From contig NC_090319.1 of the NCBI RefSeq assembly GCF_040869045.1, positions 64,080,779 to 64,144,778 of the forward strand: a stretch of 64,000 nt of DNA, given 5' to 3'. Under the pieces are notes generated by a model. It was not told the DNA's origin. It did not search any database and saw only the letters and a program-made list of their open reading frames with translations. The stretch is from Eurosta solidaginis. Lineage: Eukaryota; Arthropoda; Insecta; Diptera; Tephritidae. Position 1 is the stretch's first letter; each line of letters begins with the position of its first letter. Positions 8,425-57,902 of this stretch are shown here, in pieces. The translations under genes were made by a program, and so were the position numbers.

Positions 8425-8821
8425 GGGATGTGGGTGGACCAGGGGTGACTCCAGAATGTGTTTGTACGATATGGGTATCAAATTAAAAGTATACATGAGG
8501 GTTTTAAAAGGGAGTATCCCTTAGTTGTATATGTGAAGGCGTTTTCGAGATATCTACCAAAATGTGGACCAGGGTGACCCAGAACATCTTCTGTCGGGTA
8601 CCGCTAATTTATTTATATATGTCATACCACGAACAGTATTCCTGCCAAGATTCCAAGGGCTTTTGATTTCGCCCTGCACAACTTTTTCATTTTCTTCTAC
8701 TTCTACTTCTGGTAGGTGTCACACCCATTTTACAAAGTTTTTTCTAAAGTTATATTTTGCGTCAAAAAACCAATCCAATTACAATGTTCCATCCCTTTTT
8801 TCGTATTTGGTATATTATTAT
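8425..8821 (+). mobile_element. Truncated Helentron fragment (last satellite monomers and start of 3' body)
   Basis: Contains GTTTGTACGATATGGGTATC and the GTATATGTGAAGGCGTTTTC junction found where the satellite arrays end (about 22000, 29450 and 61600). It then continues into the same 3' body up to TTTGGTATATTATTATGG, where the gypsy fragment takes over. Confidence 0.8.
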
Positions 8822-8994
8822 GGTTAGTCGTAAACGCAGAGCAGAAGGAGATGAGCAAATCTCCAAGAACACTCAATCGTCAAACTAAAGCAAGTCAGTC
8901 GCAAGGAGTGACAGCTGGCTCCCACAATTGAATCCCCATATTCTCTATCTCGAAGATTGGAAGAAGGTCGAGCAATCTTACTGTCGGAGGACAT

Positions 8995-12419: not shown

Positions 12420-13092
12420 GCATAGTTCAGATCTGGGAGACATTAAATGCAAGTGAAAAAATAATCCGCTAGGTGGCGCACGGATCGAGATATACAGAAA
12501 ATTTATTTTAAAATGGAAAATTTGCGACCGAATTTCAACTAACTTTTCGGTGATCCAGAGACTTGAAACTTAGCACATAGTTTGAGAGTTGATGGCACTA
12601 CAATTCGTGGGAAACAAAATGCCGCCAGGTAGCAGACGAATCGAGATAAACGAAAATCCCTGAAAATCCCTGAAAAAACGCAGGGAATCTTGCGATCGAT
12701 TTTTAAGTAACTTCCCGGTGAGCTAGAGACCTGAAACTTGGGCCGTGAGCCAGAACCCTATGACAATGCAATATTTGATCAAACAAAACCCGCTAGGTGG
12801 CGCATGGATCGAGATATTAAGAAAATTAGTTTTGATTTGGGAATCTTTCAATCCATTTTTAACTAACTTCCCGGTGACCTAGAGACTTGAAACTTGGCAC
12901 ACTGTTCGAGGCTTTTTGACAATACAATTTACATAAAACAATTCCGCTAGGTGGCGCGCTAAGTGAGCTAACTACATATCCTTGAAAAACGAGGGGAATC
13001 TTGCGATCTATTTTTGAGTAACTTGCTGGTGAGCTAGAGACGTGGAACTAGGGCCGTGGTTCAGAACCCGGTGACAATGCAACATTTATCAA
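12420..13092. repeat. Degenerate tandem repeat, unit about 155-170 bp, four units
   Basis: The anchor CCGCTAGGTGGCGC and its variants start near 12466, 12622, 12790 and 12944. Each is followed by ATCGAGATA, then CTTCCCGGTGA-CTAGAGAC-TGAAACTTGG. The units are diverged. A similar CTTCCCGGTG...CTGAAATTTTGCACAC phrase occurs at 37614-37655. The repeat ends just before the start of Helentron A. Confidence 0.7.
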
Positions 13093-13430
13093 AATAAGTA
13101 AGGAAGGTTAAGTTCGGGTGTAACCGAACATTACATACTCAGTTGAGAGCTATGGTGACAACATAAGGGAAAATAACCATGTAGGAAAATGAACCGAGGG
13201 AAACCCTGGAATGTGTTTGTATGACATGTGTATCAAATGAAAGGCATTAAAGAGTATTTTATGAAGGAGTGGGCCGTAGTTCTATAGGCGGACGCCATTT
13301 AGGGATATCGCCATAAAGGTGGATCAGGGTTGACTCTAGAATTTGTTTGTAAAATATGGGTATCAAATGAAAGGTGTTAAAGAGTATTTTATGAGGGAGT
13401 GGGCCATAGTTCTATAGGTGGACGCCATTT

Positions 13431-14139
13431 CAGGCTGAGCTCAGGCCAAGGGGGTCACTGCTGGCGGACAGTGAACGGCCTATTAATTAGGTTAGCTGCG
13501 AATATCAAATAAGCAGCCCTCGACCAAGAGCGGCTGGTGAGGAGGGTTTGGCTTAAAAGGCCTAAAGCACCCTGAGAACCTCCAGTGACAGGGCGAGTAG
13601 ATGCCGCCCTGAATTAAGCATCCACAGCCTAGTGCGGGGTTGCTTCGAGGGAATACCTACCCAAGATAGGGAGGCAACTATACGACGTGGGATACACACT
13701 CAGGAAGGTAAAGAGGTAAATTATTTGTAAATTTAAGGTGATTGTCACATTAAGACTGAGCCTTAATTAAGGTATACTGGAATCAACGACTCGGATATGT
13801 TTGTTAAGGGCTGGCGAATGTGGCATTCGGAAATCTCAGTACACGGCTTGACACACCGTCGAAATGACTTTCCGGTTAATGTCCCATTCGTCTCCGTCCC
13901 GTTAAAACCTTGGCAGGCCTTGGGGTACGTTCAAAGTCCGTCATCATTAAGTTGGTGGTGCAGGTTCGGTTGAGATCCTCCCGATTAATACTGATCTGGC
14001 TCTGAACGCAGTCTTCATGAGGGACTGCGTCAACCATCACGTGGCCTCCCTGCCTTCGCATAGACAACCACGGGATCTATATAGGTAACTGCACACTCGG
14101 ACCAAGATAGCGGCCTCAAGTGGGGACCCAATTAAATAA
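13431..14139 (+). promoter_or_regulatory. 5' UTR of the R1-clade element
   Basis: GC-richer than its surroundings, with no frame of note. It begins CAGGCTGAGCTCAGG at the target junction. Non-LTR elements carry their promoter internally here. Confidence 0.6.
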
Positions 14140-14469
14140 ATGATGAGCAACAACAATACTAAAATAAAAAACCAAACACAGGAGAATGAAATGGCGTTCA
14201 ATCCATTCGTAGGAAGGAAGCTAGCTCGCTCTCCAGAAGGGCGTGGCCCATCGGCTGGGGGCCTTAACATTTCGTCGCAAGTGGTAACGAAACCCAAAGG
14301 AGCGGAGGCCGAAAGCAAGCAAGGAGCATTGTCGCCGGGTGCTACACCGAAGCTTTGCAAAAAGAACTCCGACGGCAAGGCTCAAACGGGCACACCATTA
14401 TTAAGTGAGCTAATTAAGCAGGCGTCAGCTGCGTTAAATCAGCAAAACCCCCTGGAGAGAAAAAGATGA
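14140..14469 (+). pseudogene. R1-clade ORF1, N-terminal part
   Basis: 109 residues from ATG 14140, a basic, low-complexity N-terminus of the gag-like protein. It ends in a TGA that overlaps the ATG of the next frame (ATGA, 14466-14469) just after GAGAGAAAAAG. Two readings are possible: a one-base indel in the A-run splits a single ORF1, or the downstream frame is a separate start. The continuing Gag-like sequence in the next frame makes a frameshift more likely. Confidence 0.6.
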
Positions 14470-15572
14470 CCAAGCTAGGCAAGGCGATTGAGGACTTGAT
14501 GCAGTTCTTCATAGGGCGTAATAATATACACGCGGAAATCAAGCGCTTGGCCTCCGTAATAAAAGTGCTGTACATCGAGTCGGCCCTAGAGGTAAAGAAT
14601 TTAGAACATAAATTGCGTGCAAGCGAATGCGCCAAGGATAGAAGTCCATCACCCCCAGGAAAGCGACCGAGGAATAATTCGTACTCGACCAAGGAGAACA
14701 ACGTGGTAAAACCCACTACTACTCTAAAAGATGTCTTACCAGGGCACGTGGGTGGACACAAACGACGGCAAGAAACGCAAGAGAAGACGGAGCGGAAAGA
14801 GGAAACTGCAGCCCAAAAGACGGGAGAGTGGCAGTTAGCCAAAAAGAAGAGCAAGAAAAAATCACTTAAGGCTAGGCCGGATGCAATCATCATTTCCAAG
14901 GCGGGGGATGCGACGTACGCCGACATATTGCGTAAAGTGAGAAGATGCGACGAATTAAAATCCCTGGGTGATGACGTCAAAACGATTAGAAGAACGGCGA
15001 AAGGAGAGCTGTTACTAGAGCTGAAAAAATCGCAAGATGGGAAAACAAGCGCGTACCAAGCAGAAATTGAAGCGGTACTAAAGGACTCAGCTAAAGTTAT
15101 AACAAAGTCCCAAATGGTCACGCTACAGTGCAGAGATCTCGATGAGATTACTACGCCCGAGGAGATTTGCAACGCCCTCCACCAGCAATGCAACATCAAA
15201 CTTCCAGATGTGGCTGCCATAAAAAGCATACGCACAGGGTACAGTGGCACGAAGTCGGCACTTATAAGCCTTACAGCGGATGATGCCAAGGCGGTTCTTA
15301 ATACGCAAAGAATCCGGGTAGGATGGGTTTCCTGCCGAATTAGAGAGCTCAAGCAAGAAAAACGCTGTTATAGGTGCTGGGGCTACGGGCATATAGCTCA
15401 GAAATGTAAGGAGACTGTAGATAGGTCTAGCCTATGCAGGAAATGCGGCCAGGAAGGTCATAAGGCTGCAAGTTGCGAAAATGCACCGAAATGCGCGCTA
15501 TGTGGGGGACAACATTCAGCAGGCAGTTTTAAATGCCCACAACGAGAGGGCAGCAAAATGACTGTCTCATGA
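14466..15572 (+). CDS. R1-clade ORF1 (gag-like) with three CCHC zinc knuckles
   Basis: The 368-residue nucleic-acid-binding protein of the retrotransposon. The N-terminal half is charged and Lys/Glu-rich (KEETAAQKTGEWQLAKKKSK). The middle contains a Gag fold typical of the group (residues about 130-280). The C-terminus has three zinc knuckles: CYRCWGYGHIAQKC, CRKCGQEGHKAASC and CALCGGQHSAGSFKC. It would coat the element RNA in the RNP. Its TGA overlaps the ORF2 start (ATGA, 15569-15572), which suggests coupled re-initiation. The true N-terminus probably includes the preceding frame. Confidence 0.85.
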   Translation: MTKLGKAIEDLMQFFIGRNNIHAEIKRLASVIKVLYIESALEVKNLEHKLRASECAKDRSPSPPGKRPRNNSYSTKENNVVKPTTTLKDVLPGHVGGHKRRQETQEKTERKEETAAQKTGEWQLAKKKSKKKSLKARPDAIIISKAGDATYADILRKVRRCDELKSLGDDVKTIRRTAKGELLLELKKSQDGKTSAYQAEIEAVLKDSAKVITKSQMVTLQCRDLDEITTPEEICNALHQQCNIKLPDVAAIKSIRTGYSGTKSALISLTADDAKAVLNTQRIRVGWVSCRIRELKQEKRCYRCWGYGHIAQKCKETVDRSSLCRKCGQEGHKAASCENAPKCALCGGQHSAGSFKCPQREGSKMTVS

Positions 15573-18541
15573 GGGTATTGCAGCTCAATTTAAACCATTG
15601 CGAGGCAGCCCAAGAGCTATTATCCCAAACAGTCTATGAAGGAGGATATGACATAGTGGTACTCTCTGAACAATACAAAAATCGCCAGGAGCAGGGTTGG
15701 CTCTCAGATTCAGCAGGGAAAGCCTCAATTTGGGCACCAGGGAAATTTCTCCCACAGGAAATTATGACGCCAACGGTAGCAGGATTCACGTGGGCAAAAA
15801 TCAACGGTATATACGTCTTCAGTTGCTATGCCCCTCCGAGCATGACCATCGCCGAGTTCGAAGACATGATATACGGGATCACCATTGAAGCACGAGGTAA
15901 ACACCCGCTTTTTGTGTGTGGAGACTTCAATGCATGGTCATCTGTGTGGGGAAGTAGACGAACCAACGAAAGAGGGAGAGTTCTCCTCGAAAGTCTTACT
16001 TCTTTGAGGCTAGAACTCCTAAATGAACCAGGGATATATACCTTCGATACAGGTACCAGACGATCCATTATATATCTCACCTTCGCTAGCAGCGAAATAG
16101 CAAGACGAGCAAAATGGTCCATAAGCAACGTCTACACACACAGCGACCATAAAGCTATTAGCGTAGAGCTGCTCGAAACTCCACGAACGGTAGCAGCAAG
16201 ACATCGACAAAGTAGGAAATGGAAACAGCACCTTTTCGACCCTCAAATATTTGACATTATCTGGAAGGACGCCATAGTACGAGAATCGCATGCGGAAGAC
16301 CAGTCGGTTCAAATCACTAAGTTGCTATGTATGGCATGTGATGCTGCCATGCCCAGAAGTCGCGGAAAAGCACAGCGCACTCCGGTATATTGGTGGAATG
16401 ACGAAATTGCGGAAGAGCGTAGAAAATGCCACAAAGCACGAAGAACAGCGCAGAGGGCACGCTCATCACCACGATATGCAGAGCTACACAGCACCTATGT
16501 CGCACAAAGAAAGGCACTTAAAAATGCCATAAAAAAGAGCAAGAAGTTATGCTTTAGGGAACTGCTGGATAATGTCGACCTAGATCCTTGGGGATCAGCC
16601 TACAGAACTGTGATGGCCAAAGTTAAAGGACCGATATCACAGCAACCTACGTGCACGATACTGATGAATATTATTGTTGAAACACTTTTCCCGGCGCAAG
16701 ATCGCTGGACTTATCCAAGCGAGGATCTAGAAAGTACGGAAATTCCGCAAATTACAGAGCAAGAGGTGCTGGACGCTGCAAAAAGAGTTGCTGATAACAA
16801 ATCCCCAGGACCCGACGAAGTACCAAACATAGCCCTTAAAGCCGCGATTACAACTAGGGCTGCATTATTTACTGATCTTTTTAATGCCTGTATGCAAGAA
16901 GGCGTGTTCCCTCGCCCGTGGAAACGACAAAGACTTGTCCTATTGCTGAAACGTGGTAAACAGCCGGACCAACCATCCTCATATAGGCCACTTTGTATGC
17001 TGGATTCCCTAGGGAAGATTTTCGAGCGTATAATTAGTGAGCGCCTACAGCTGACTCTAGAAAGACCAGGTGGCTTATCGAATAGTCAATATGGATTTCG
17101 CAAATCAAGATCCACCGTAGATGCAATACAAACAGTCGTCAATATAGCTAGAGAAGCTATCTCTGGAGGCCAAAATAAAAGGAAGTTCTGTGCACTGATT
17201 ATGTTGGACATCAAGAATGCTTTTAACACTGCGAACTGGATGCAGATAATGGCAGCGCTGCAAAGCTTCGGCACTCCAGCTTACTTACGCAGAATTATAG
17301 GTAGCTATCTTAAAGACAGAGTACTTCTTTTTGACACGGATCAAGGAGCTAAAGAGTACAAAATCACAGGAGGCGTCCCGCAGGGATCTGTTCTCGGTCC
17401 AACGCTTTGGAATGTAATGTATGACGGGGTGCTAAAGATTGATCTACCAGAAAACACGCAAATTGTGGGATATGCTGATGATATTGCAGTGGTAGTAGTG
17501 GCCAAGAAACTGGACCTGCTTCAAGCATTATGTAATGACGCCGTAGCAAGAATAAAGGAATGGCTGACCAATACAGGACTGGAGTTGGCTAGCCAAAAGA
17601 CGGAAGTGGTATTAGTAAGCTCCAAACGGTCGGCGAACGAGTTAGTCTTAACTGTCGGGGATCATCAAATCACCTCAAAGGATTCCTTAAAATACTTAGG
17701 AGTGCACATTGACTCTAAGTTAACTTTCAAAGAGCACTTCAGAGCGGTGGGGGAGAAAATTACCAAAGTTAATGGATCACTTATGCGAATAATGCCTAAC
17801 ATTGGTGGTCCGCGCGAAGCTATACGTCAGCTATTGTCCACAGTAACCAGCTCAATAATACTATACGCAGCACCAGTGTGGTATGGATCTAAACAGACCC
17901 ATCAAAAATATATATTAGCAGCGTACCGACTTGCTTCTTTAAGAATAGCAAGTGCTTATCGGACGGTGTCCGACGACGCGATCCTGGTTATAACCCGGAA
18001 AATCCCAGTGGACTTACTGGCAAGCGAAATGGCCGATCTGTATAACACTAATATCGAGCGACCATCTGAAGAAGACAAGAAAAGAGCAAGGACACAAACA
18101 ATAGCTAAGTGGCAAGAACGGTGGGAGGCCTCGAGTAAAGGGCGTTGGACTTTCACACTAGTTTGGAACGTAGCTCAATGGAATGAGCGGAAGCGCGGCG
18201 AACTGAACTACCATCTCACGCAAATAATGAGTGGACATGGCGGTTTCAAAGAGTATTTATGGAAGCGTAGGATAGAGGAAGATCCTCATTGCCCAATGTG
18301 TACCACAGAGTTAGAAAACGCAGAACACGTCATGTTCTACTGCCCCCGTTTCCACGAAGAAAGACTCACCTTGCATGGAGTCTTTGGGGAGGAACCTACC
18401 ACGAGAAATTTAGTTTCACATATGTGCAGCAGGAAAGAATGCTGGACTGCAGTGAGCAAAATGGCATTTATAGTAATGACACGCCTGATGGATGCTGAGA
18501 GGGAGCGCAGAGAAATGCGCATGCGAAGCAGTGGTGATTAA
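15569..18541 (+). CDS. R1-clade ORF2: endonuclease and reverse transcriptase
   Basis: The start is set at ATG 15569 (MRVLQLNLNHCEAAQELL), where the endonuclease homology begins. An upstream in-frame ATG at 15533 lies inside ORF1. It gives 990 residues, about the usual length. The APE-type endonuclease (residues 1-220) shows SEQY, CGDFNAWSSVWGS and a final SDH, but the conserved SxIDLTxxS reads SIIYLTFAS (codon 16073-16075), replacing a catalytic Asp. The reverse transcriptase follows (about 400-700) with the catalytic box YADDIAVVVV and GGVPQGSVLGPTLWN. The C-terminus has CPMC...HVMFYC. It would nick the target and copy the RNA there. The frame is uninterrupted, so the copy is recent, but nicking is probably lost. 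Confidence 0.9.
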   Translation: MRVLQLNLNHCEAAQELLSQTVYEGGYDIVVLSEQYKNRQEQGWLSDSAGKASIWAPGKFLPQEIMTPTVAGFTWAKINGIYVFSCYAPPSMTIAEFEDMIYGITIEARGKHPLFVCGDFNAWSSVWGSRRTNERGRVLLESLTSLRLELLNEPGIYTFDTGTRRSIIYLTFASSEIARRAKWSISNVYTHSDHKAISVELLETPRTVAARHRQSRKWKQHLFDPQIFDIIWKDAIVRESHAEDQSVQITKLLCMACDAAMPRSRGKAQRTPVYWWNDEIAEERRKCHKARRTAQRARSSPRYAELHSTYVAQRKALKNAIKKSKKLCFRELLDNVDLDPWGSAYRTVMAKVKGPISQQPTCTILMNIIVETLFPAQDRWTYPSEDLESTEIPQITEQEVLDAAKRVADNKSPGPDEVPNIALKAAITTRAALFTDLFNACMQEGVFPRPWKRQRLVLLLKRGKQPDQPSSYRPLCMLDSLGKIFERIISERLQLTLERPGGLSNSQYGFRKSRSTVDAIQTVVNIAREAISGGQNKRKFCALIMLDIKNAFNTANWMQIMAALQSFGTPAYLRRIIGSYLKDRVLLFDTDQGAKEYKITGGVPQGSVLGPTLWNVMYDGVLKIDLPENTQIVGYADDIAVVVVAKKLDLLQALCNDAVARIKEWLTNTGLELASQKTEVVLVSSKRSANELVLTVGDHQITSKDSLKYLGVHIDSKLTFKEHFRAVGEKITKVNGSLMRIMPNIGGPREAIRQLLSTVTSSIILYAAPVWYGSKQTHQKYILAAYRLASLRIASAYRTVSDDAILVITRKIPVDLLASEMADLYNTNIERPSEEDKKRARTQTIAKWQERWEASSKGRWTFTLVWNVAQWNERKRGELNYHLTQIMSGHGGFKEYLWKRRIEEDPHCPMCTTELENAEHVMFYCPRFHEERLTLHGVFGEEPTTRNLVSHMCSRKECWTAVSKMAFIVMTRLMDAERERREMRMRSSGD

Positions 18542-18751
18542 ATGGACACTCAGAGCAAATAGCGGGAACCTGGACGCAGGGACAACAGTAGGCTCTTAAA
18601 AAATGAGAAATATGGAACGCCACCCTGAAGTAATGCGAAAGTGGTGCCGGGGTGGGCGACGGTTCCAGAACGGGGCTGTTTTTTAGTCTACGGACACACG
18701 GTTGCTGCGACGGCAGCAATTATGGTGCATTAGGCATTTTTCAGCCTCCCC

Positions 18752-18791
<40 letters not shown>
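18542..18791 (+). other. R1-clade 3' UTR and poly(A) tail
   Basis: A 3' UTR of about 210 bp and a run of about 38 A (18754-18791) that ends at the target duplication. A long clean A run fits a recent insertion. Confidence 0.85.
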
Positions 18792-18793
<2 letters not shown>

Positions 18794-21700
18794 GCCATTT
18801 AGGGATATAGCCATAAAGGTGGATCAGGGTTGACTCTAGAATGCGTTTGTACGATATGGGTATCAAATGAAAGGTGTTAATGAGTATTTTAAAAGGGAGT
18901 AATCCTTAGTTCCATAGGTGGACGCCGTTTCGAGATATCGCCATAAAGGTGGACCAGGGGTGACCCTAGAATTTGTTTGTACAATATGGGTATCAAAAGA
19001 AAGGTGTTAATGATCTTTTTAAAAGGGAGTGATGCTTAGTTCCACAGGTGGACGCCGTTTCGAGATGTCTCCATAAAGGTGGACCAGGTGTGACCCTAGA
19101 ATTTGTTTGTACGATATGGGTATCAAATTAAAGGTATTAAGGAGGGTTTTAAAAGGGAGTGGTGGTAGTTGTATAGGTGGTCGCCTTTTCGAGATATCGC
19201 CTTAAGGTGGACCAGGGGTGACTCTAGAATGCGTTTGTACGATATGGGTATCAAATGAAAGGTGTTAATGATTATTTTAAAAGGGAGTAATCCTTAGTTC
19301 CATAGGTGGACGCCGTTTCGAGATATCGCCATAAAGGTGGACCAGGGGTGACCCTAGAATTTGTTTGTACAATATGGGTATCAAAAGAAAGGTGTTAATG
19401 ATTTTTTTAAAAGGGAGTGATGCTTAGTTCCACAGGTGGACGCCGTTTCGAGATGTCTCCATAAAGGTGGACCAGGTGTGACCCTAGAATTTGTTTGTAC
19501 GATATGGGTATCAAATTAAAGGTATTAAGGAGGGTTTTAAAAGGGAGTGGTGGTAATTGTATAGGTGGTCGCCTTTTCGAGATATCGCCATAAAGGTGGA
19601 CCAGGGGAGACTCTAGAATGCGTTTGTACGATATGGGTATCAAATGAAAGGCGTTAATGAGTATTTTAAAAGGGAGTAATCCTTAGTTCCATAGGTGGAC
19701 GCCGTTTCGAGATATCGCCACAAAGGTGGACCAGGGGTGACCCTAGAATTTGTTTGTACAATATGGGTATCAAAAGAAAGGTGTTAATGATTTTTTTAAA
19801 AGGGAGTGATGCTTAGTTCCACAGGTGGACGCCGTTTCGAGATGTCTCCATAAAGGTGGACCAGGTGTGACCCTAGAATTTGTTTGTACGATATGGGTAT
19901 CAAATTAAAGGTATTAAGGAGGGTTTTAAAAGGGAGTGGTGGTAGTTGTATAGGTGGTCGCCTTTTCGAGATATCGCCTTAAGGTGGACCAGGGGTGACT
20001 CTAGAATGCGTTTGTACGATATGGGTATCAAATTAAAGGTATTAAGGAGGGTTTTAAAAGGGAGTGGTGGTAGTTGTATAGGTGGTCGCCTTTTCGAGAT
20101 ATCGCCTTAAGGTGGACCAGGGGAGACTCTAGAATGCGTTTGTACGATATGGGTATCAAATGAAAGGTGTTAATGAGTATTTTAAAAGGGAGTAATCCTT
20201 AGTTCCATAGGTGGACGCCGTTTCGAGATATCGCCATAAAGGTGGACCAGGGGTGACCCTAGAATTTGTTTGTACAATATGGGTATCAAAAGAAAGGTGT
20301 TAATGATTTTTTTAAAAGGGAGTGATGCTTAGTTCCACAGGTGGACGCCGTTTCGAGATGTCTCCATAAAGGTGGACCAGGTGTGACCCTAGAATTTGTT
20401 TGTACGATATGGGTATCAAATTAAAGGTATTAAGGAGGGTTTTAAAAGGGAGTGGTGGTAGTTGTATAGGTGGTCGCCTTTTCGAGATATCGCCTTAAGG
20501 TGGACCAGGGGTGACTCTAGAATGCGTTTGTACGATATGGGTATCAAATTAAAGGTATTAAGGAGGGTTTTAAAAGGGAGTGGTGGTAGTTGTATAGGTG
20601 GTCGCCTTTTCGAGATATCGCCTTAAGGTGGACCAGGGGAGACTCTAGAATGCGTTTGTACGATATGGGTATCAAATGAAAGGTGTTAATGAGTATTTTA
20701 AAAGGGAGTAATCCTTAGTTCCATAGGTGGACGCCGTTTCGAGATATCGCCATAAAGGTGGACCAGGGGTGACCCTAGAATTTGTTTGTACAATATGGGT
20801 ATCAAAAGAAAGGTGTTAATGATTTTTTTAAAAGGGAGTGATGCTTAGTTCCACAGGTGGACGCCGTTTCGAGATGTCTCCATAAAGGTGGACCAGGTGT
20901 GACCCTAGAATTTGTTTGTACGATATGGGTATCAAATTAAAGGTATTAAGGAGGGTTTTAAAAGGGAGTGGTGGTAGTTGTATAGGTGGTCGCCTTTTCG
21001 AGATATCGCCTTAAGGTGGACCAGGGGAGACTCTAGAATGCGTTTGTACGATATGGGTATCAAATGAAAGGTGTTAATGAGTATTTTAAAAGGGAGTAAT
21101 CCTTAGTTCCATAGGTGGACGCCGTTTCGAGATATCGCCATAAAGGTGGACCAGGGGTGACCCTAGAATTTGTTTGTACAATATGGGTATCAAAAGAAAG
21201 GTGTTAATGATTTTTTTAAAAGGGAGTGATGCTTAGTTCCACAGGTGGACGCCGTTTCGAGATGTCTCCATAAAGGTGGACCAGGTGTGACCCTAGAATT
21301 TGTTTGTACGATATGGGTATCAAATTAAAGGTATTAAGGAGGGTTTTAAAAGGGAGTGGTGGTAGTTGTATAGGTGGTCGCCTTTTCGAGATATCGCCTT
21401 AAGGTGGACCAGGGGTGACTCTAGAATGCGTTTGTACGATATGGGTATCAAATGAAAGGTGTTAATGATTATTTTAAAAGGGAGTAATCCTTAGTTCCAT
21501 AGGTGGACGCCGTTTCGAGATATCGCCATAAAGGTGGACCAGGTGTGACCCTATAATTTGTTTGTACAATATGGGTATCAAAAGAAAGGTGTTAATGATT
21601 TTTTTAAAAGGGAGTGATGCTTAGTTCCACAGGTGGACGCCGTTTCGAGATGTCTCCATAAAGGTGGACCAGGTGTGACCCTAGAATTTGTTTGTACGAT

Positions 21701-22030
21701 ATGGGTATCAAATTAAAGGTATTAAGGAGGGTTTTAAAAGGGAGTGGTGGTAGTTGTATAGGTGGTCGCCTTTTCGAGATATCGCCATAAAGGTGGACCA
21801 GGGGAGACTCTAGAATGCGTTTGTACGATATGGGTATCAAAAGAATGGTGTTAATGAGTATTTTAAAAGGGAGTGATGCTTAGTTCCACAGGTGGACGCC
21901 GTTTCGAGATATCGCCATAAAGGTGGACCAGGGGTGACTCTAGAATGTGTTTGTACGATATGGGTATCAAATTAAAGGTATTAATGGGAGTTTTAAAAGG
22001 GAGTGGTGGTAGTTGTATATGTGAAGGCGT
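18792..22030. repeat. 130-bp satellite array of Helentron A with higher-order repeats
   Basis: The monomer is about 128-130 bp (anchor GTTTGTACGATATGGGTATC at 18845, 18975, 19105, 19233). Three monomer types alternate. Type 1 carries AATCCTTAGTTCCAT, type 2 GATGCTTAGTTCCAC, and type 3 GGTGGTAGTTGTAT. The type-1 marker recurs at 18901, 19289, 19678, 20194, 20710, 21098 and 21485, giving steps of 388, 389, 516, 516, 388 and 387. The higher-order unit is thus a trimer, with a tetramer in two places through an extra type-3 monomer. The array also includes about two diverged monomers left of the R1-clade insertion (13200-13430). Short open frames here are by-products of the repeat. Confidence 0.92.
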
Positions 22031-23289
22031 TTTCCAGATATCGACCAAAATGTGGACCAGGGTGACCCAGAACATCATCTGTTGGATACCGCTAATTTAT
22101 TTATATATGTAATACCTGCCAAGATTTTAAGGGTTTTTTATTTCGCCCTGCAGAACTTTTTCATTTTCTTCTACTTAATATGGTAGGTGTCACAAACATT
22201 TTATAAAGTTTTTTCTAAAGTTATATTTCGCGTCAATAAAACAATCCCATTACCTTACCATGTTTCATCCCTTTTTTCGTATTTGGGATAGAATTATGGC
22301 ATTTTTTTCATTTTTCGTAATTTTCGATATCGAAAAAGTGGGCGTGGTCATAGTCGGATTTCGTTCATTTTTCATACCAAGATAAAGTGAGTTCAAGTAA
22401 GCACGTGAACTAAGTTCATTAAAGATATGTCAATTTTTGCTCAAGTTATCGTGTTAAAGGCCATGCGGAAGGACAGACGGACGACTGTGTATAAAAACTG
22501 GGCGTGGCATCAACCGATTTCGCCCATTTTCACAGAAAACAGTTAGCGTCACAAAATCTATGCCCCTTTCAATTTTAAAAGGATTGGTTAATTTTTGTTC
22601 GACTTATGGCGTTAAAAGTATCCTAGACAAATTAAATGAAAAAGGGCGGAGCCACGCCCATTTTGAAATTTTCTTTTATTTTTGTATTTTGTTGCACCAT
22701 ATCATTACTGGAGTTGAATGTTGACATAATTTACTTATATACTGTAAAGATATTAAATTTTTTGTTAAAATTTCCAAATTCCATCATGATATCTTCAACG
22801 ACTGACAAATTACAGCTTGCAAAAGTTTTAAATTACCTTCTTTTAAAAGTGGACGGTGCCACGCCCATTGTCCAAAATTTTACTACTTTTCTATTCTGCG
22901 TCATAAATTCACCTCATCCACCAAGTTTCGTCGCTTTATCTGTCTTTGGTAATGAATTATCGCACTTTTTCGGTTTTTCGAAATTTTCGATATCGAAAAA
23001 GTGGGTGTGGTTATAGTCCGATATCGTTCATTTTAAATAGCGATCTAATATGAGTGCTCGGGAACCTACATACCAAATTTCATCAAGATACCTCAAAATT
23101 TACTCAAGTTATCGTGTTAACGGACGGACGGACGGACGGACATGGCTCAATCAAATTTTTTTTCGATCCTGATTATTTTGATATATGGAAGTCTATATCT
23201 ATCTCGATTCCTTTATATATGTACAACCACCCGTTATCCAATCAAACTTAATATACTCTGTGAGCTCTGCTCAACTGAGTATAAAAATT
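22031..23289 (+). other. Helentron A 3' body
   Basis: Non-coding. It is built from loosely related phrases around GGGCGTGG, CGATTTCG and CTCAAGTTATCGTGTTAA. TTTTCGATATCGAAAA appears twice (near 22321 and 22985). The (GGAC)n run lies at 23121-23142, then the CTCTGCTCAACTGAGTAT end. Near-identical bodies follow the arrays at 29500-30750 and 61650-62967. Confidence 0.8.
23121..23142. repeat. (GGAC)n microsatellite in Helentron A
   Basis: CGGACGGACGGACGGACGGAC preceded by CAAGTTATCGTGTTAA. Equivalent runs occur at 30576-30604, 62796-62820 and, inverted, 47803-47838 and 50046-50060. Confidence 0.85.
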
Positions 23290-23861
23290 AATAAAGCAGT
23301 GAAGTCGTAGGCTGAAGAATGATACAAATATTACAAGGTAAAACGCATGAACCAATAAACAGATCCCGCATTAAAAAATTAGAGAGCAAAAAATCATAGT
23401 TAGCTCTGACATAAATTTTCTCAGAGTGATGTCCCGCCTTTGATGTTTCATTGCTGAAGTAGTGTTCAGAATTTATTCCAATCGGAATATTTTGCTCCGC
23501 TCTTACCTCCTATTACATTTTTTATCTCAAAGATTTATTTGGATCGAGTTTAAAACTAAATAGCATTATCTACTACCTAAAATGTTTTGGTTGAAGTTTT
23601 CATTGTATACGTATGAAAAGCTGATTGTTTACAAGTGACGATTGGATGAAATGACGTGAATTCATTATTCGTGTCTTAAGACGTATTTGTTCACATTTAA
23701 TTACAGTTTTTGTTTTTTTTTTTCGTACGGAATGAAAAATAAGGAGTAAAATGTAAGCAAAAATGTGTCCGGACGCGATCTGTAAATCCTGCTATACAGC
23801 ACTTCTTGAAGTTGTATATAAAAATGAAGTACGTTGTGCCAGCTAACCCTATTTGGCGATA

Positions 23862-24305
23862 CTAGTCGTCAATTGGGATCACCAAAAAAAGTGACGTGGC
23901 TACAAAGGCTACGATGACAGCAAATACTTCGTATTGTCCACATATACTGCAAGACCCACTTTTCTGCTTCTTTATCTTATACCAACTCTTCGCCTCCATG
24001 TTTGAACAGCTCGGCGGGTATTCCGTCATTACTTGGCACCTTTTTTTTAGCCGGGATATTGGCATTCTCACTTCGCCATAGTTGAATGCTGGAGCGTCAG
24101 TTACCAGGTCGGCATTATCGTTCCTGCAAGAATCTGCCACGGTCTTAAAACCTTCCGTCATTAAAAGAGCATGAAATATGTATGGTAAACCGAAAATAAT
24201 AATAATAATAGTATTTTTTTTCGCGATAAATGTCCGGGGAGATAGAGCCCACTTTTCTTCCAGAATGTGGTTTGCTACTGGGAAAAATAATTGGTCATCG
24301 TACAT
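23862..24305 (-). CDS. Unidentified 147-residue frame with two hydrophobic stretches
   Basis: Not recognised. Starts at ATG 24303-24305 on the minus strand. A hydrophobic stretch lies at about residues 30-48 (IIIIIFGLPYIFHALL, encoded partly by an AAT repeat) and a second near the C-terminus (FAVIVAFVATSLFLVI). Between them are CxxC-like cysteines (CSICG). In the duplicated copy (55498-55920) the frame is broken by indels, and the N-terminal third overlaps sequence resembling the SINE body. It may be a chance frame or a decayed gene. Confidence 0.22.
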   Translation of the reverse strand: MYDDQLFFPVANHILEEKWALSPRTFIAKKNTIIIIIFGLPYIFHALLMTEGFKTVADSCRNDNADLVTDAPAFNYGEVRMPISRLKKRCQVMTEYPPSCSNMEAKSWYKIKKQKSGSCSICGQYEVFAVIVAFVATSLFLVIPIDD

Positions 24306-24395
24306 ATTTTAGCCCGACTCCATCTGCATCTGATAAGGCAGATAACTTTTTTGCTTAGAAACATTTCATGGCCAAAACACAATCGAGGGTTTGCC
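24303..24395 (-). repeat. Diverged SINE-body fragment
   Basis: AGCCCGACTCCATCTGCATC...GGCAGATAACTTTTTTGC...CATTTCATGGC resembles, in order, the ATGCCGACTCCGAAGGCATC...GGCAGATGAATTTTCAC...CTTTTCATGGC part of the SINE at 12035-12095. It is also present at about 55925-56015. Confidence 0.4.
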
Positions 24396-24894
24396 AAGCC
24401 ACAAAATCATTTTGATCTTAGTTGTTCGCCCGCTTTCAAAAAAGGAAGAAAAAATATAATCTGAAAATATAATTTTCACTTCGGCGTAGTCGTTTACTCT
24501 GGTGACACTTTTAAATACTCCGAACACTGGTAGCGAAATATGAGAGAAATGTATTAAATCGAAATATTTCAAAAGCCCTACGTCATCAAACTTTTTTATG
24601 AAATTCGATTACAAATACAACAATTCCGGAATGCGTGATCTTGGCTCATTTGTTTATGGGTAAAACGGGTGAGAGTCAAATGACGTTTACAAAAATTGGC
24701 TCTCATATTTTGTTATTTTATTTTGATTTTGTTTTCATTACAAAAAAATTTACATAAGCAAACATTACATTTTTATTTTATTATATTAAATATTTTTACG
24801 TTAAGCTCAAACTTTTTTATGGGAACCACCGGAATCTTAATCGGAGCGTAATCATTTTGGTTGAAAAGCCATCAGAACGGAGGGGAAGTTATCA

Positions 24895-25855
24895 TAACTC
24901 TGGCACCCTCATCCTGAAATATTGGAAACATTGCACTCGTTGCTGAACGACAACAACGGAGGGAGCTTCATTTCCCGGCGGGTTGAAAGGCTTAGAGGAG
25001 GCAGTTCATGGCTCTGCGAATGCAGACTGGAATCAACAAAAGAAAACTATGCTGTAAAATAAACATTTATATCCCTTGTCTCTTCAAATTTTTCACATCA
25101 CAGGACTTGGTACTGATTTAATGTACATACTGCCATATTGTTCATGACGTGGACCTTGCACATAACACAACAACTGGACAGCCACTTCGATGTTATAAGG
25201 TTACTACTGTGGAACTCCAACAACTTTTGGTTGTGATACAAAATAAATGCATCCGAAATTGCATACAATGCACAAAGATGCATCAAAATCCTCAAATCGC
25301 TGCAACGGAGAAAGTTGCAGGGCTGCCAAATTTCCCACCTAGAAATGCCACGGAATATCTTCTTAAGACGTCTGAGCACCGGGCATCCCAAAAAATAATT
25401 GATCGATGTAGTTGCACCTCCAAGGTAGATAAGAAGACACCTGCATAAGCCCTATGACGAGATGGCGTAGTACGATCCAGAACAAAGTCCTCAAAGTCAG
25501 GCTCCCGCCTTTGCAGACATCGCCGAAGAAGAATGCACACTTCCGAAGAATATGCGCGTTACTCTGCCCTAAAGTCGATGTCTATGTATGGCCCCAGCCT
25601 GGTGTATAGCACAAATCATCCATTCGTCTGTAATTGGGAACAAAAATCTGTAATAGAAACTTCTTTTTGCTAAAACCATATTGGAACTGCACGATTCCTG
25701 ACCTCCGTTAGAGGATTTCATTAAAGCTTTTTGAGTGTTCTACCCTATTAACCCAGGCGAGGGATTTGTACAATAAAAGTAAGAACCATACATGGACGGA
25801 CGGGAAAAAGACTATGCCGCCCAGTTCCGTTGCCACAAACAGGAAAATGTATATG
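24895..25855. repeat. Dispersed segment, copy 2 of 3
   Basis: Matches 7377-8400 and 56514-57500 (see 7377). Small indels shift all short frames between copies. Confidence 0.75.
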
Positions 25856-25859
25856 TATC

Positions 25860-26152
25860 TTCGCAGCTAGCAATTGATACTAAGATAGTCAAGAGTATTT
25901 GAAGTGCCACTCGCAAGTTTTGAAAAACATTTTCTCCATACGAGATTATAAAAGTGAGTAATTCTAACGGAGTTTTAGGTCCAATTTCTTTTCTTACTGC
26001 GAAGTAATATTTTGCAGTTAATATTTCGATAAAAAATTCTGATCCATCGAAATCTTATTATAAAATACACCCAAGTTCTTACAATTTCTTTCTAAGTCGT
26101 TATTATTCTTGTTTAACAAATTTCCAACGTATAAGAGAAATCCAAATTAAAC
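25860..26152 (-). pseudogene. hAT transposase C-terminal relic (ZMYM1/DUF4371-like)
   Basis: On the minus strand, broken frames read KTPLELLTFIISYGENVFQNL followed by VALQILLTILVSIASCE. This fits the end of ZMYM1-like hAT transposases, where a TPLDVLN stretch leads to the LRILLTIPVSVASGERSFS dimerisation motif. The upstream part of the same frame is found on the far side of Helentron B (30751-31045). Stops and shifts make it non-functional. Family assignment rests on remembered motifs. Confidence 0.6.
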
Positions 26153-26263
26153 AAGTAAGGAAGGCTAAGTTCGGGTGTAACCGAACATTACATACTCAGT
26201 TGAGAGCTGTGGAGACAAAGTAAGGGAAATCACCATGTTGTAAAAGGAACCTAGGGTAACCCT

Positions 26264-29200
26264 GGAATGTGTTTGTATGACAGGTGTATCAAATGGAAGG
26301 TATTAAAGAGTATTTTAAGAGGAAGTGGGCCATAGATCTATAGATGGACGCCATTTAGGGATATCGCCATAAAGGTGCACCAGGCCTGACTCGAGCATTT
26401 GTTTGTACGATATGGGTACCAAATGAAATGTGTTAATGATAATTTTAAAAGGGAGTGGGCCTAAGTTCTATAGGTGGACGTCTTTTCGAGATATCGCCAT
26501 AAAGGTGGACCAGGGGTGACTCTAGAATTTATTTTATACGATATGGGTATCAAATGAAAGGTGTTAATGAGTATTTTAAAAGGGAGTGGGCCTAAGTTCT
26601 ATAGGTGGACGCATTTCGGAATATCGTTATAAAAGTGGACCTGGGTTGACTCTAGAATACGTTTGTACAATATGGGTGTCAAACGAAAAGTGTAATAATT
26701 GTTTTAAAATGGAGTGGGCCTTTGTTCTATGGGTGGACGCCTTTTCGGGATATCGCCATAAACGTGGACCAGGGGTGACTCTAGAATGCGTTTGTACAAT
26801 ATGGGCATCAAATGAAAGGTGCTAATGAGTATTTTAAAAGGGTGTGGGCCTTAGTTCTATAGGTGGACGCCTTTTCGAGATATCGCCATAAAGGTGGACC
26901 AGGGGTGACTCTAGAATTTGTTTATACGATATGAGTATCAAATGAAAGGTGTTAATGAGTATTTTAAGAGGGCGTGGGCCTTAGTTCTATATGTGGACGC
27001 CTCTTCGAGATATCGCCATAAACGTGGACCAGGGGTGACTCTAGAATTTGTTTGTACTATATGGGTATCAAATGAAAGGTGTTAATGAGTATTTTAAAAG
27101 GGAGTGGGCCTAAGTTCTATAGGTGGACGCATTTCGGAATATCGTTATAATAGTGGACCTGGGTTGACTCTAGAATGCGTTTGTACAATATGGGTGTCAA
27201 ACGAAAAGTGTAATAATTGTTTTAAAATGGAGTGGGCCTTTGTTCTATGGGTGGACGCCTTTTCGGGATATCGCCATAAACGTGGACCAGGGGTGACTCT
27301 AGAATGCGTTTGTACAATATGGGTATCAAATGAAAGGTGTTAATGAGTATTTTGAGAGGGCGTGGGCCTTAGTTCTATGTGTGGACGCCTTTTCGAGATA
27401 TCGCCATAAACGTGGACCAGGGGTGACTCTAGAATTTGTTTGTACTATATGGGTATCAAATGAAAGGTGTTAATGAGTATTTTAAAAGGGAGTGGGTCTA
27501 AGTTCTATAGGTGGACGCATTTCGGAATATCGTTATAAAAGTGGACCTGGGGTGACTCTAGAATGCGTTTGTACAATATGGGCGTCAAACGAAAAGTGTA
27601 ATAATTGTTTTAAAATGGAGTGGGCCTTTGTTCTATGGGTGGACGCCTTTTCGGGATATCGCCATAAACGTGGATCAGTGGTGACTCTAGAATGCGTTTG
27701 TACAATATGGGTATCAAATGAAAGGTGCTAATGAGTATTTTAAAAGGGTGTGGGCCTTAGTTCTATAGGTGGATGCCTTTTCGAGATATCGCAATAAAGG
27801 TGGCCCAGGGGTGACTCTAGAATTTTTGTGTACGATATGGGTATCAAATGAAAGGTGTTAATAAGTATTTTAAAAAGGCGTGGGCCTTAGTTCTATAGGT
27901 GGACGCCTTTTCGAGATATCGACATGAAGGTGGACCAGGGGTGACTCTAGAATTTGTTTGTACGATATGGGTATCAAATGAAAGGTGTTAATAAGTATTT
28001 TAAAAAGGAGTGGGCCTTAGTTCTATAGGTGGATGCCTTTTCGAGATATCGCCATAAAGGTGGACCAGGGGTGACTCTAGAATTTTTTTGTACGATATGG
28101 GTATCAAATGAAAGGTGTTAATAAGTATTTTAAAAAGGCGTGGGCCTTAATTCTATAGGTGGACGCCTTTTCGAGATATCGACATGAAGGTGGACCAGGG
28201 GTGACTCTAGAATTTGTTTGTACGATATAGGTATCAAATGAAAGGTGTTAATAAGTATTTTAAAAAGAGTGGGCCTTAGTTCTATAGGTGGATGCCTTTT
28301 CGAGATATCGCCATAAAGGTGGACCAGGGGTGACTCTAGAATTTTTTTGTACGATATGGGTATCAAATGAAAGGTGTTAATGAGTATTTTAAAAAGGCGT
28401 GGGCCTTAGTTCTATAGGTGGATGCCTTTTCGAGATAACGCCATAAAGGTGGACCAGGGGTGACTCTAGAATGCGTTTGTACGATATGGGTATCAAATGA
28501 AAGGTATTAATGAGTATTTTCAAAGGGTGTGGGCCTTAGTTCTATAGGTGGACGCGTTTTCGAGATATCGCCATAAAGGTGGACCAGGGGTGACTCTAGA
28601 ATTTGTTTGTACGATATGGGTATCAAATGAAAGGTGTTAATGAGTATTTTAAAAGGGCGTGGGCCTTAGTTCTATAGGTGGACGCCTTTTCGAGATATCG
28701 ACATAAAGGTGGACCAGGGGTGACTCTAGAATTTGTTTATACGATATGGGTATCAAATGCAAGGTGTTAATAAGTATTTTAAAAAGGAGTGGGCCTTAGT
28801 TCTATAGGTGGATGCCTTTTCGAGATATCGCCATAAAGGTGGACCTGGGGTGACTCTAGAATTTTTTTGTACGATATGGGTATCAAATGAAAGGTGTTAA
28901 TAAGTATTTTAAAAAGGCGTGGGCCTTAGTTCTATAGGTGGACGCCTTTTCGAGATATCGACATGAAGGTGGACCAGGGGTGACTCTAGAATTTGTTTGT
29001 ACGATATGGGTATCAAATGAAAGGTGTTAATAAGTATTTTAAAAAGGAGTGGGCCTTAGTTCTATAGGTGGATGCCTTTTCGAGATATCGCCATAAAGGT
29101 GGACCAGGGGTGACTCTAGAATTTTTTTGTACGATATGGGTATCAAATGAAAGGTGTTAATGAGTATTTTAAAAAGGCGTGGGCCTTAGTTCTATAGGTG

Positions 29201-29500
29201 GATGCCTTTTCGAGATAACACCATAAAGGTGGACCAGGGGTGACTCTAGAATTTTTTTGTACGATATGGGTAACAAATGAAAGGTGTTAATGAGTATTTT
29301 AAAAAGGAGTGGGCCTTAGTTCTATATGTGGACGCCTTTTCGAGATATCGCCATAAACGTGGACCAGGGGTGACTCTAGAATGTGTTTGTACGATATGGG
29401 TATCAAATTAAAGGTATTAATGAGGGTTTTAAAAGGCAGTGGCCCTTAGTTGTATATGTGAAGGCGTTTTCGAGATATCTACCAAAATGTGGACCAGGGT
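26264..29500. repeat. 130-bp satellite array of Helentron B
   Basis: About 25 monomers of 130 bp. The left half carries a multimer marked by GGACGCATTTCGGAATATCG at about 26607, 27125 and 27513 (steps 518 and 388: a tetramer, then a trimer). The right half is mainly dimers of 260 bp, alternating AATTTTTTTGTACG and AATTTGTTTGTACG (28081, 28340, 28860, 29120). The first monomers (26264-26400) are diverged, as in the other copies. Confidence 0.9.
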
Positions 29501-30750
29501 GATCCAGAACATCATCTGTCGGGTACCGCTAATTTATTTATATATGTAATACCACGTACAGTATTCTTTCCAAGATTCCAAGGGCCTTTGATTTCGCCCT
29601 GAAAAACTTTTTCATTTTCTTCTACTTAATATGGTAGGTGTCACACCCATTTTACAAAGTTTTTTCTAAAGTTATATTTTGCGTCAACAGACCAATACAA
29701 TTACCATGTTTCATTCCTTTTTTCGTATTTGGTATATAATTATGGCATTTTTTTCATTTTTCGTAATTTTCGATATCGAAAAATTGGGCGTGGTCATAGT
29801 CGGATTTCGGCCATTTTTTACACCAATACAAAGTGAGTTCAGATAAGTACGTGAACTGAGTTTAGTAAAGATATATCGATTTTTGCTCAAGTTATCGTGT
29901 TAACGGCCGACCGGAAGGACTGACGGTCGACTGTGTATAAAAACTGGGCGTGGCTTCAACCGATTTCGCCCTTTTTCTAGACAAATTAAATGAAAAAGGG
30001 CGGTGCCACGCCCATTTTTAAATTTTCTATTATTTGTTGTACTTTGTTGCACCATGTCATTACTGGAGTTGAATGTTGGCATAATTTACTTATATACTGT
30101 AAAAATATTAACTTTTCTTTTAAAATTTGAATTAAAAAAAAAAAAATTTTAAAAAGTGGGCGTGGTCGTTCTCCGATTTTGCTAATTTTTATTAAGCAGA
30201 CATAAACTAATAAGAGTAACGTTCCTGCCAAATTTCATCATGATATCTTCAACGACTGCCAAATTACAGCTTGCAAAACTTCTAAATTACCTTCATTTAA
30301 AAGTGGGCGGTGTCACACCCATTGTTCAAAATTTTACTAGTTTTCTATTCTGCGTCATAAGCTCAACTCACCTACCAAGTTTCATCGCTTAATGCGTATT
30401 TGGTAATGAATTATCGCACTTTTTCGATTTTTCGAAATTTTCGATATCGAAAAAGTGGGCGTGGTTATTGTCCGATATCGTTCATTTTAAATAGCGGTCT
30501 GAGATGAGTGCCCAGGAACCTACGTACCAAATTTCATCAAGATACCTCAAAATTTACTCAAGTTATCGTGTTAACAGACAGACGGACGGACGGACGGACG
30601 GACATGGCTCAATCGAATTTTTTTCGATACTGATGATTTTGATATATGGAAGTCTATATCTATCTCGATTCCTTTATACCTGTACAACCAACCGTTATGC
30701 AATCAAAATTAATATACTCTGTGAGCTCTGCTCAACTGAGTATAAAAATT
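29500..30750 (+). other. Helentron B 3' body
   Basis: Same non-coding body as 22031-23289, with a deletion near 29980 relative to 62130-62230 that removes a CACAGAAAACAGTTA segment. Confidence 0.75.
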
Positions 30751-31045
30751 ATTTAGTCGTGTAAATCTTGTACGTATTTCTTGTTGGAGACGATCGAAAA
30801 CACTTTTCATAACGTGAGAAATTTCACATTCTGAGGAAAGACTCTAGCCGATTCGCCGAGTTTTTTGCGGCGCCTTCTTACACGGTTTACTATATCAATA
30901 TCCAATTTTTCACAAAGAGACCGCTTTTTCTTTTGCTTCTTCACAGAGTTTCTCGAATTTCACAAAGTTCAGTCCCTAAGGATTTAAGACCATCATACGC
31001 TTCTCTAAAATTCATCTCCGGATCTTGTAATATGAGCTACACACG
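30751..31045 (-). pseudogene. hAT transposase middle relic, upstream half of the split frame
   Basis: Minus-strand pieces read LILQDPEMNFREAYDGLKSL, a shifted CEKLDIDIVNRVRRRRKK, and SECEISHVMKSVFDRLQQE ending RTRFTRLN at the Helentron edge. Their order matches ZMYM1-like hAT transposases: a basic RRRRK patch before a helix with TRF. The continuation is 25860-26152. Several frameshifts. Confidence 0.6.
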
Positions 31046-57500: not shown

Positions 57501-57504
57501 CGCA

Positions 57505-57791: not shown

Positions 57792-57902
57792 AAGTAAGGA
57801 AGGCTAAGTTCGGGTGTAACCGATGTAACATTACATACTCAGTTGAGAGCTGTGGAGACAAAGTAAGGGAAATCACCATGTTGTAAAAGGAACCTAGGGT
57901 AA

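What the first reader, a model, noticed from the sequence alone, without database searches (positions are those of the whole stretch)
13096..23289. Helentron-like element that carries a satellite array of several kb
Three full elements (A here, B 26153-30750, C 57792-62967) share identical ends and 3' bodies, and each holds 25 or more tandem 130-bp monomers. Two other copies (47665-48689, 49899-50706) have the same ends but no array. DINE-1 relatives with short central tandem repeats are known in Drosophila (DINE-TR1). Arrays this long, inside the element and with higher-order structure, suggest these elements seed satellite DNA.
Basis: partly seen in the sequence, partly recalled or inferred. 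Interest (0 to 1): 0.75.

Follow-up and report, generated by a model that had tools for sequence, protein, structure and literature searches.

The report
Satellite-carrying Helentron transposon family
These are copies of a non-protein-coding rolling-circle transposon that carries a tandem-repeat (satellite) array inside itself; the type is already known, but here it is very abundant, the arrays differ from copy to copy, and a second, different transposon in the same genome carries a related array.

Summary
A, B and C are Helentron-type elements with 27, 25 and 29 tandem ~130-bp monomers and the sequence hallmarks of DINE-1/HINE elements; the target site is only partly tested. Corrections: their canonical direction is the minus strand; A is split by a 5.36-kb LINE; B and C are one insertion copied by segmental duplication (flanks 97-98% identical); D is a diverged relative.

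The host assembly (1.9 Gb) holds 45,634 exact 3' hairpins; the hairpin followed at 84-112 bases by the monomer motif occurs 26,523 times (controls 0). In 364 kb read, 21 of 21 arrays of this monomer type touch Helentron sequence, in 16-17 insertions. Edge monomers are conserved between insertions (first 17 of 18, last 16 of 18); inner arrangements mostly differ. So the array moves with the element and its middle is remodelled in place.

New within the known kind: a canonical-type Helitron here carries homologous monomers (score 187; largest of 500 shuffles 53).

I read no free-standing array, but candidates could not be read, so satellite seeding is unproven. Satellite-bearing Helentrons are published (DINE-TR1, oyster HINEs).

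The parts
13092..23289 (-). Element A: array-bearing Helentron/HINE (canonical 5' end at 23289, 3' end at 13092), interrupted by a LINE
   Evidence: BLAST homology to B stops at these ends; subTIRs and hairpin
13112..13129 (-). A: 3' hairpin GTTCGG-TTACAC-CCGAAC
13135..13147 (-). A: 3' subTIR, 13 bp, exact inverted copy of the 5' subTIR
13190..13431 (+). A: first two monomers of the array (tail side)
13432..18791 (+). LINE (ORF1 14466-15572, ORF2 15533-18541 with endonuclease and reverse transcriptase, A run) inserted in the array of A; target duplication ACGCCATTT
18792..22072 (+). A: main array, 25 monomers, 388-bp (3-monomer) higher-order repeat
22073..23289 (-). A: 5' body with GTCC microsatellite, inverted repeat and 5' subTIR (23270-23282)
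26147..30750 (-). Element B: uninterrupted array-bearing Helentron
26248..29500 (+). B: array of 25 monomers
57786..62967 (-). Element C: array-bearing Helentron, segmental-duplication partner of B
57891..61654 (+). C: array of 29 monomers with a partial 4-monomer (about 520 bp) order
49898..50710 (+). Element E: array-free copy (about 810 bp); the array was probably lost by a deletion at a GTC microhomology
47662..48691 (+). Element D: diverged relative without array, different subTIR
8433..8823 (-). Remnant R: last monomer plus part of the 5' body; deleted copy of the B/C locus
23283..31801 (+). Segmental duplication copy 1 (holds B)
54903..64000 (+). Segmental duplication copy 2 (holds C)

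Best explanation
A, B, C, E and, as a diverged relative, D are non-autonomous rolling-circle transposons of the Helentron group (HINE/DINE-1 type). The array-bearing element is: T-rich 5' end, subTIR with inverted repeat, GTCC microsatellite, core, a second degenerate core, a block of ~130-bp tandem repeats, 3' subTIR, 3' hairpin, T-rich 3' end. The array is an integral part that moves with the element. Shown: the array joins the element at the same two places in separate insertions; the outermost monomer on each side is nearly always a conserved variant of its own; array length and inner arrangement differ between copies, also between copies of one insertion made by segmental duplication. Inferred: a helicase-encoding partner moves the element by rolling-circle replication, and unequal exchange or replication slippage in the middle of the array expands, shrinks and reorders it after insertion, giving private higher-order repeats. 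Inferred and weaker: the array started as two diverged monomers (now the edges), and the middle grew between them.
For: Hallmarks: 13-bp subTIR pair perfect in A and B, 12 of 13 in C and D, 11 of 13 in E; inverted repeat in A-D; 3' hairpin; GTCC microsatellite starting at 146-151 in all five, as in the published definitions. One-sided empty site for the copy at -14487, in a run of six T. Homology between A and B stops at the ends; flank comparison separates 16-17 array-bearing insertions. Edges: outside their own locus, 17 of 18 first monomers match a first monomer best and 16 of 18 last monomers match a last one. Middle: of 188 interior monomers 96 match best in their own array, 15 in the duplication partner, 77 in another locus; repeated orders are mostly private; 0 of 27 A monomers has a counterpart of 95% or more in B or C. 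B and C, flanks 97-98% identical, keep their two outermost monomers on each side (96.9-100%), but only 11 collinear pairs reach 95% among 25 and 29 monomers. Copies of the E insertion carry 0, 2 and 3 monomers. Genome: 26,523 exact hairpin-to-monomer junctions and 45,634 exact hairpins, controls 0.
Against: Movement and the enzyme were not observed. Pfam found no Helitron-type domain in the 14 ORFs of 150 aa or more in the window, and the assembly search for one (PF14214) did not complete. 77 of 188 interior monomers are nearest to another locus and several monomer types recur in several arrays, so the middle is not purely private. One genuine last monomer (L030 array of 11) does not fall in the last class. 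The B/C contrast is moderate: 11 collinear pairs against a mean of 6.5 and a maximum of 9 in 100 shuffles of B's order, and 19 of 25 B monomers and 16 of 29 C monomers still have a counterpart of 95% or more somewhere in the other array. No two-sided empty site was found.
Confidence: 0.85

Rival explanations
1. Satellite first: the 130-bp repeat is an independent dispersed satellite into which Helentrons inserted, or which inserted into Helentrons.
For: 16 of 31 clusters of exact monomers in a capped listing of the first 2.9 Mb of C1 have no exact hairpin within 2.5 kb on the expected side; a second carrier has homologous monomers, so the repeat is not bound to one element.
Against: 21 of 21 arrays of this monomer type in 364 kb touch Helentron tail or body; junctions and edge monomers recur in separate insertions. 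Missing exact hairpins are expected: the same 364 kb hold 17 exact hairpins against 27 tail matches.
Confidence: 0.07
2. The arrays are made by aberrant rolling-circle replication during transposition (slippage or partial rounds), not by exchange after insertion.
For: The review PMC12628747 (passages) describes such a route for plant Helitrons; 77 of 188 interior monomers match another locus best, so array content does travel.
Against: B and C are one insertion, yet their array lengths and middles differ (25 and 29); copies of the E insertion carry 0, 2 and 3 monomers. Change after insertion is therefore real; the first array may still have arisen by rolling circle.
Confidence: 0.2
3. The resemblance to Helentrons is superficial, and A, B and C are another class (for example a foldback or MITE-like element).
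For: No transposase-like protein was recognised in the window; no two-sided empty site was found.
Against: 13-bp subTIRs, inverted repeat, GTCC microsatellite, 3' hairpin about 19 bases from the end and T-run boundaries, in the published order.
Confidence: 0.04
4. On the second carrier: the match between Helentron-borne and Helitron-borne repeats is old common ancestry of the two transposon groups' central repeats, not transfer of the repeat between carriers.
For: The monomers are only 93 of 136 columns identical, so any transfer is old.
Against: Published DINE-1 central repeats change so fast that species sharing a subTIR have unrelated ones (PMC2374699, passages), which makes retention since the split of Helitrons and Helentrons unlikely.
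Confidence: 0.25

Closest known systems
DINE-TR1 (Helentron with ~150-bp central tandem repeats; Dias et al. 2015, not read, known only through passages of PMC9957191 and PMC6922343)
   Same: Non-autonomous Helentron with central tandem repeats of similar length that expanded in some species; reported also in Bactrocera tryoni.
   Different: The monomer here is about 130 bp; whether it is homologous to the DINE-TR1 repeat could not be tested, because no DINE-TR1 sequence was at hand. Arrays over 10 copies were reported in three species, with a derived satellite in two more. For scale, 2,219 clusters of the 154-bp repeat were counted in the D. virilis assembly (PMC3833285, passages); here 26,523 exact junctions.
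Cg_HINE elements of the Pacific oyster (PMC7492417, passages)
   Same: HINE anatomy with satellite-like arrays between microsatellite and 3' end; variable array length; longest 29.3 monomers.
   Different: There most arrays have 2-3 monomers, mostly of 140-180 bp; in the copies read here 1-29 of about 130 bp. Edge against middle of the array is resolved here.
DINE-1 (PMC2374699 and PMC4067079, passages)
   Same: 13-bp subTIRs, inverted repeat, GTCY microsatellite, central repeats, 3' hairpin; T-rich boundary.
   Different: Another subTIR sequence (ATACTCAGTTGAG) than those in the part of the published table that I saw.
Canonical Helitron (definition in PMC4067079, passages), for the second carrier in L024, L026 and the left flank
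   Same: 5' TC, 3' CTAG (CAAG in L024), 18-base palindrome 11 bases from the end, insertion between A and T.
   Different: Non-autonomous as far as read; carries ~129-bp monomers homologous to those of the Helentron.

Membership tests
HINE / DINE-1 (non-autonomous Helentron) | 12-15 bp subterminal inverted repeats near both ends | tested here: met
   13 of 13 in A and B, 12 of 13 in C and D, 11 of 13 in E
[quoted passage not shown]
   TATACTC/GAGTATA present in A-D, absent as an exact match in E
HINE / DINE-1 (non-autonomous Helentron) | short hairpin between 3' subTIR and 3' end | tested here: met
   GTTCGG-N6-CCGAAC exact in A, B and E, 1 mismatch in D, 2 in C, where the folding program gave only part of this hairpin; tails after the 3' subTIR of 43-49 bases as cut
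HINE / DINE-1 (non-autonomous Helentron) | GTCY microsatellite in block A | tested here: met
   starts at 146-151 in 5 of 5 elements
HINE / DINE-1 (non-autonomous Helentron) | insertion in a TT/T-rich target without long target duplication | tested here: inconclusive
   T runs at the ends of many copies and a one-sided empty site with six T; no two-sided empty site
HINE / DINE-1 (non-autonomous Helentron) | autonomous partner with Rep/helicase/endonuclease and the same ends | tested here: inconclusive
   no such domain in the 14 ORFs of 150 aa or more in the window; the assembly search for PF14214 did not complete
DINE-TR1 | central repeats homologous to the ~150-bp DINE-TR1 repeat | not testable with these tools
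   no DINE-TR1 sequence was held; words of the monomer were not found in relevant papers
Classical satellite DNA | long free-standing arrays | tested here: inconclusive
   none in the 364 kb read; candidate clusters elsewhere could not be read
Canonical Helitron (second carrier) | 5' TC, 3' CTRR, palindrome about 11 bp from the 3' end, A|T target | tested here: met
   L024: 1,692 bp, A|TC...CAAG|T; L026 copy...CTAG at GTGGTA|TTACAT inside a Helentron body; stem GGCAGA/TCTGCC and 11 bases after it. The 5' end was seen in 1 copy only, and L024's CAAG departs from CTRR at one base

The most novel reading that the evidence does not exclude
The 130-bp tandem repeat is a module shared by different carriers: it rides on Helentrons (26,523 exact junctions) and, as a version with 93 of 136 columns identical, on a canonical-type Helitron family of the same genome (949 exact array-body junctions and 2,206 exact 3' ends), while a 15-base core of it also sits in both arms of an inverted-repeat element. 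The repeat would then be a selfish or replication-promoting passenger that has moved between rolling-circle transposons, with fixed edge monomers and a middle that evolves separately in each copy.
Probability: 0.35. Interest if true: 0.68.

Novelty: new member of a known kind. Interest (0 to 1): 0.48.

Why it matters
How transposons give rise to satellites is an open question. This genome offers tens of thousands of copies of one satellite-bearing transposon; in the copies read, arrays differ from copy to copy, edge monomers mark the ancestral boundaries, and segmental duplications give natural before-and-after pairs. That makes the rate and place of array growth directly measurable. A homologous repeat on a second transposon type raises the question of what the repeat does for its carriers.

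Tried and rejected
Words of the repeat in the paper library (0 papers; 6 papers, none on this subject by title).

Rejected: (a) B and C as independent insertions. (b) The monomer as a tandem copy of the element's own body: score 32, reached by 10 of 200 shuffles; reverse strand 83 of 200. (c) E as the ancestral array-free form: copies of the same insertion keep 2 or 3 monomers, and E joins GTC to GTC. (d) Homology of the inverted-repeat arm to the monomer beyond the exact 15-mer: 12 of 200 shuffles as good, and 104 of 300 for the Helitron-type monomer. (e) A 102-base DNA query of the assembly returned 0, but the tool says that very common words are skipped; pattern counts replaced it.

Weak: array length rises with closeness to the consensus body (rho 0.56, p 0.047, 13 copies, C dropped as the duplicate of B); suggestive only. 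One search timed out; one search replaced it.

Rows dropped: the edge analysis left out 4 of the 25 rows that scored under 60 bits (three Helitron-type, and the partial monomer at -6290), one partial hit of the array at -13187, and, for the edge classes, arrays of one monomer (R and L026:1009).
Full report
1. What is in the window. Three places hold tandem ~130-bp repeats. Counting by a conserved anchor gives 82 monomers, all on the plus strand: 27 in A, 25 in B, 29 in C and 1 in a remnant at 8433-8823. A is split by a LINE of 5,360 bp with an A run, a target duplication of 8-9 bases, a 368-aa ORF and a 1,002-aa ORF with endonuclease and reverse transcriptase; without it A is about 4.84 kb. 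Self-comparison shows that 23283-31801 and 54903-64000 are copies of one another, with flanks 97.3% (2,840 columns) and 97.9% (1,027 columns) identical. B and C are therefore one insertion; part of the remnant's left flank matches theirs at about 91%, so it is a third, deleted copy.

2. What the element is. Read on the minus strand, A and B have a perfect pair of 13-bp subterminal inverted repeats (ATACTCAGTTGAG); C and D have one mismatch, E two. The inverted repeat beside the 5' one is present in A-D; a GTCC microsatellite starts at 146-151 in all five; the tail after the 3' repeat is 43-49 bases as I cut it and contains a hairpin. Published features of DINE-1 and HINE elements are 13-bp subTIRs, inverted repeat, GTCY microsatellite, central repeats, 3' stem-loop and TT preference (PMC2374699, passages), and, in mite HINEs, a 3' subTIR 38-60 bases from the end with a palindrome 8-35 bases from it (PMC4067079, passages). 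By that paper's rule (80% over the last 60 bases) D is another subfamily (0.65-0.73), C and E fall just short of each other (0.79), and D's two subTIRs differ from A's in a matched way. A one-sided empty site exists for the copy that begins 14,487 bases left of the window: the D locus has AAAACACC|TTTTTTCGG where that copy has AAAACACC|TTTTTATACTC.

3. How general it is. The window is C1:64080779-64144778 of a 1.9078-Gb assembly in 569 contigs. No tool named the organism; that it is a fly is my inference from the DINE-1 type and is not tested. Exact pattern counts in the assembly: 3' hairpin 45,634; hairpin followed after 84-112 bases by GTATCAAATG 26,523, or 58% of the hairpin count; monomer 26-mer 89,234; reversed-pattern controls 0 each time. 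I read 200 kb around the window and 10 spread stretches of 10 kb. In these and the window, 364 kb, a profile search gives 241 monomer hits in 25 rows; A takes two rows, so 24 loci. Three are the Helitron type of paragraph 6; the other 21 all touch Helentron tail or body. Of 27 tail matches, 17 have an array attached, 1 has an array 1.7 kb away behind other sequence, and 9 have none. Scaling the exact 26-mer by its yield in the read sequence (54 exact among 228 Helentron-type hits; 6 among 21 in the spread samples alone) gives roughly 0.3-0.4 million monomers, 2.1-2.6% of the assembly: an estimate from a small sample, most of it one region.

4. Independent insertions. I compared 47 flanks of 24 elements. 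Two sets share flanks: B, C and R; and E with the copies at -48825, -7237 and 81427 (left flank) and -42227 (right flank of E). The left flank of D matches that of the copy at -14487, which is the empty site above. The other matches are pieces of at most 159 bp, overlaps of neighbouring elements, or a repeat on both sides of one element. The 21 array loci thus represent 17 insertions by flanks, or 16 if the two opposite copies 56 bases apart at -57155 and -54214 are one rearranged event.

5. How the array behaves. For each monomer in arrays of two or more I asked for the best match outside its own locus. First (tail-side) monomers match first monomers in 17 of 18 cases, last (body-side) monomers match last ones in 16 of 18. 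Of the three misses one array has lost its tail, one is cut by the end of the sample, and one (L030, 11 monomers) is a genuine exception. B and C were treated as one locus there; the copies of the E insertion were not, but none of their edge matches is to each other. Interior monomers (188 in arrays of three or more) match best in their own array in 96 cases, in the B/C partner in 15, in another locus in 77. Joint clustering shows repeated orders that are mostly private (a 3-monomer order in A, blocks in B, a 4-monomer order in C, others elsewhere), although several monomer types recur in several arrays. B and C share 11 collinear monomer pairs at 95% identity, of 25 and 29, including the outer two on each side; shuffled order gives a mean of 6.5 and at most 9; 19 of 25 B and 16 of 29 C monomers still have such a counterpart somewhere in the other array. 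Copies of the E insertion carry 0, 2 and 3 monomers (another is truncated), and E joins GTC to GTC across the missing part. Hence the array entered with the element and has been changed after insertion, mostly in the middle. The 77 matches to other loci show that inner composition is also inherited or exchanged.

6. A second carrier. L024, L026 and the left flank at -67924 hold weaker-scoring monomers (27-50 bits). The consensus of six of them from L024 (129 bp) aligns with the Helentron monomer at score 187, against a maximum of 53 in 500 shuffles; 93 of 136 columns are identical. The carrier in L024 is 1,692 bp, starts A|TC and ends CAAG|T; the L026 copy ends CTAG, has an 18-base palindrome 11 bases before the end, and sits between A and T inside a Helentron body. 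That fits the canonical Helitron definition; the 5' end was seen in one copy only. A fourth match to its 3' part, in L023, shows no monomers. Its 3' end (28 bases) occurs 2,206 times exactly and its array-to-body junction (34 bases) 949 times. In the first 62 Mb of C1, 11 of 30 listed junctions have a listed 3' end 452-555 bases further on (read by eye, distances). So two kinds of rolling-circle transposon carry homologous tandem repeats. I did not see this in the passages I read. One search on Helentron, canonical Helitron and satellite found 31 papers and listed 12, and I opened none for this point, so I do not claim that it is unpublished.

7. What is known. Helentrons with satellite-like central arrays are published: DINE-TR1, whose repeats became satellites in several Drosophila lineages and which is reported in Bactrocera tryoni (PMC9957191 and PMC6922343, passages); 154-bp Helitron-derived repeats in 2,219 clusters of D. 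virilis (PMC3833285, passages); oyster HINEs with a longest array of 29.3 monomers (PMC7492417, passages); DINE-type repeats making 69% of the Y in D. americana (PMC10783647, passages); a 2025 review (PMC12628747, passages). Less usual are the number of copies with arrays, the clear split between conserved edges and changing middle, and the second carrier.

8. What is not shown. Transposition, the enzyme, and the birth of a free satellite. In the first 2.9 Mb of C1, 15 of 31 clusters of exact monomers have an exact hairpin within 2.5 kb on the expected side (chance about 3.5% each); 16 do not. The listing is capped at 100 places and holds no minus-strand place beyond 0.58 Mb, so it is a rough sample. 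Many of the 16 may have mutated or lost tails, since the read sequence has 17 exact hairpins against 27 tails; but some could be free arrays.

Noticed in passing
44597-46585: Foldback-like element: 391-bp inverted arms (95.7%) around five 200-bp tandem units (45120-46120). Both arms hold the exact 15-mer GGTATCAAATGAAAG of the satellite monomer; beyond that the alignment is matched by 12 of 200 shuffles.
   Followed up: partly
L026:946 and L024:2169-3860: Canonical-type Helitron with homologous 129-bp monomers, in L026 inserted at A|T inside a Helentron body.
   Followed up: yes
13432-18791: LINE with two open frames and a clean target duplication, so probably young.
   Followed up: partly
4752-5441 and 51114-51758: Two trypsin-like genes (Pfam Trypsin) in a duplication 4347-5639 / 50703-51995; the second found no relative in the protein database.
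   Followed up: partly
23283 and 50703: Ends of segmental-duplication matches coincide with Helentron ends (A's 5' end, E's 3' end); the other flanks do not match, so the cause is unresolved.
   Followed up: partly
12457-13091: A few diverged ~156-bp tandem units directly left of A; no similarity to the 130-bp monomer beyond shuffles.
   Followed up: partly
1208-3374, 8827-11379, 32413-37365: LTR-retrotransposon-like fragments with gag, zinc knuckle, protease, partial reverse transcriptase and integrase C-terminal matches, partly in inverted copies.
   Followed up: no
C1:1118479-1125381 of the assembly: 3 and 13 exact monomers, mostly at 130-bp spacing, with no exact hairpin on the expected side: candidate free-standing array, not readable.
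   Followed up: partly
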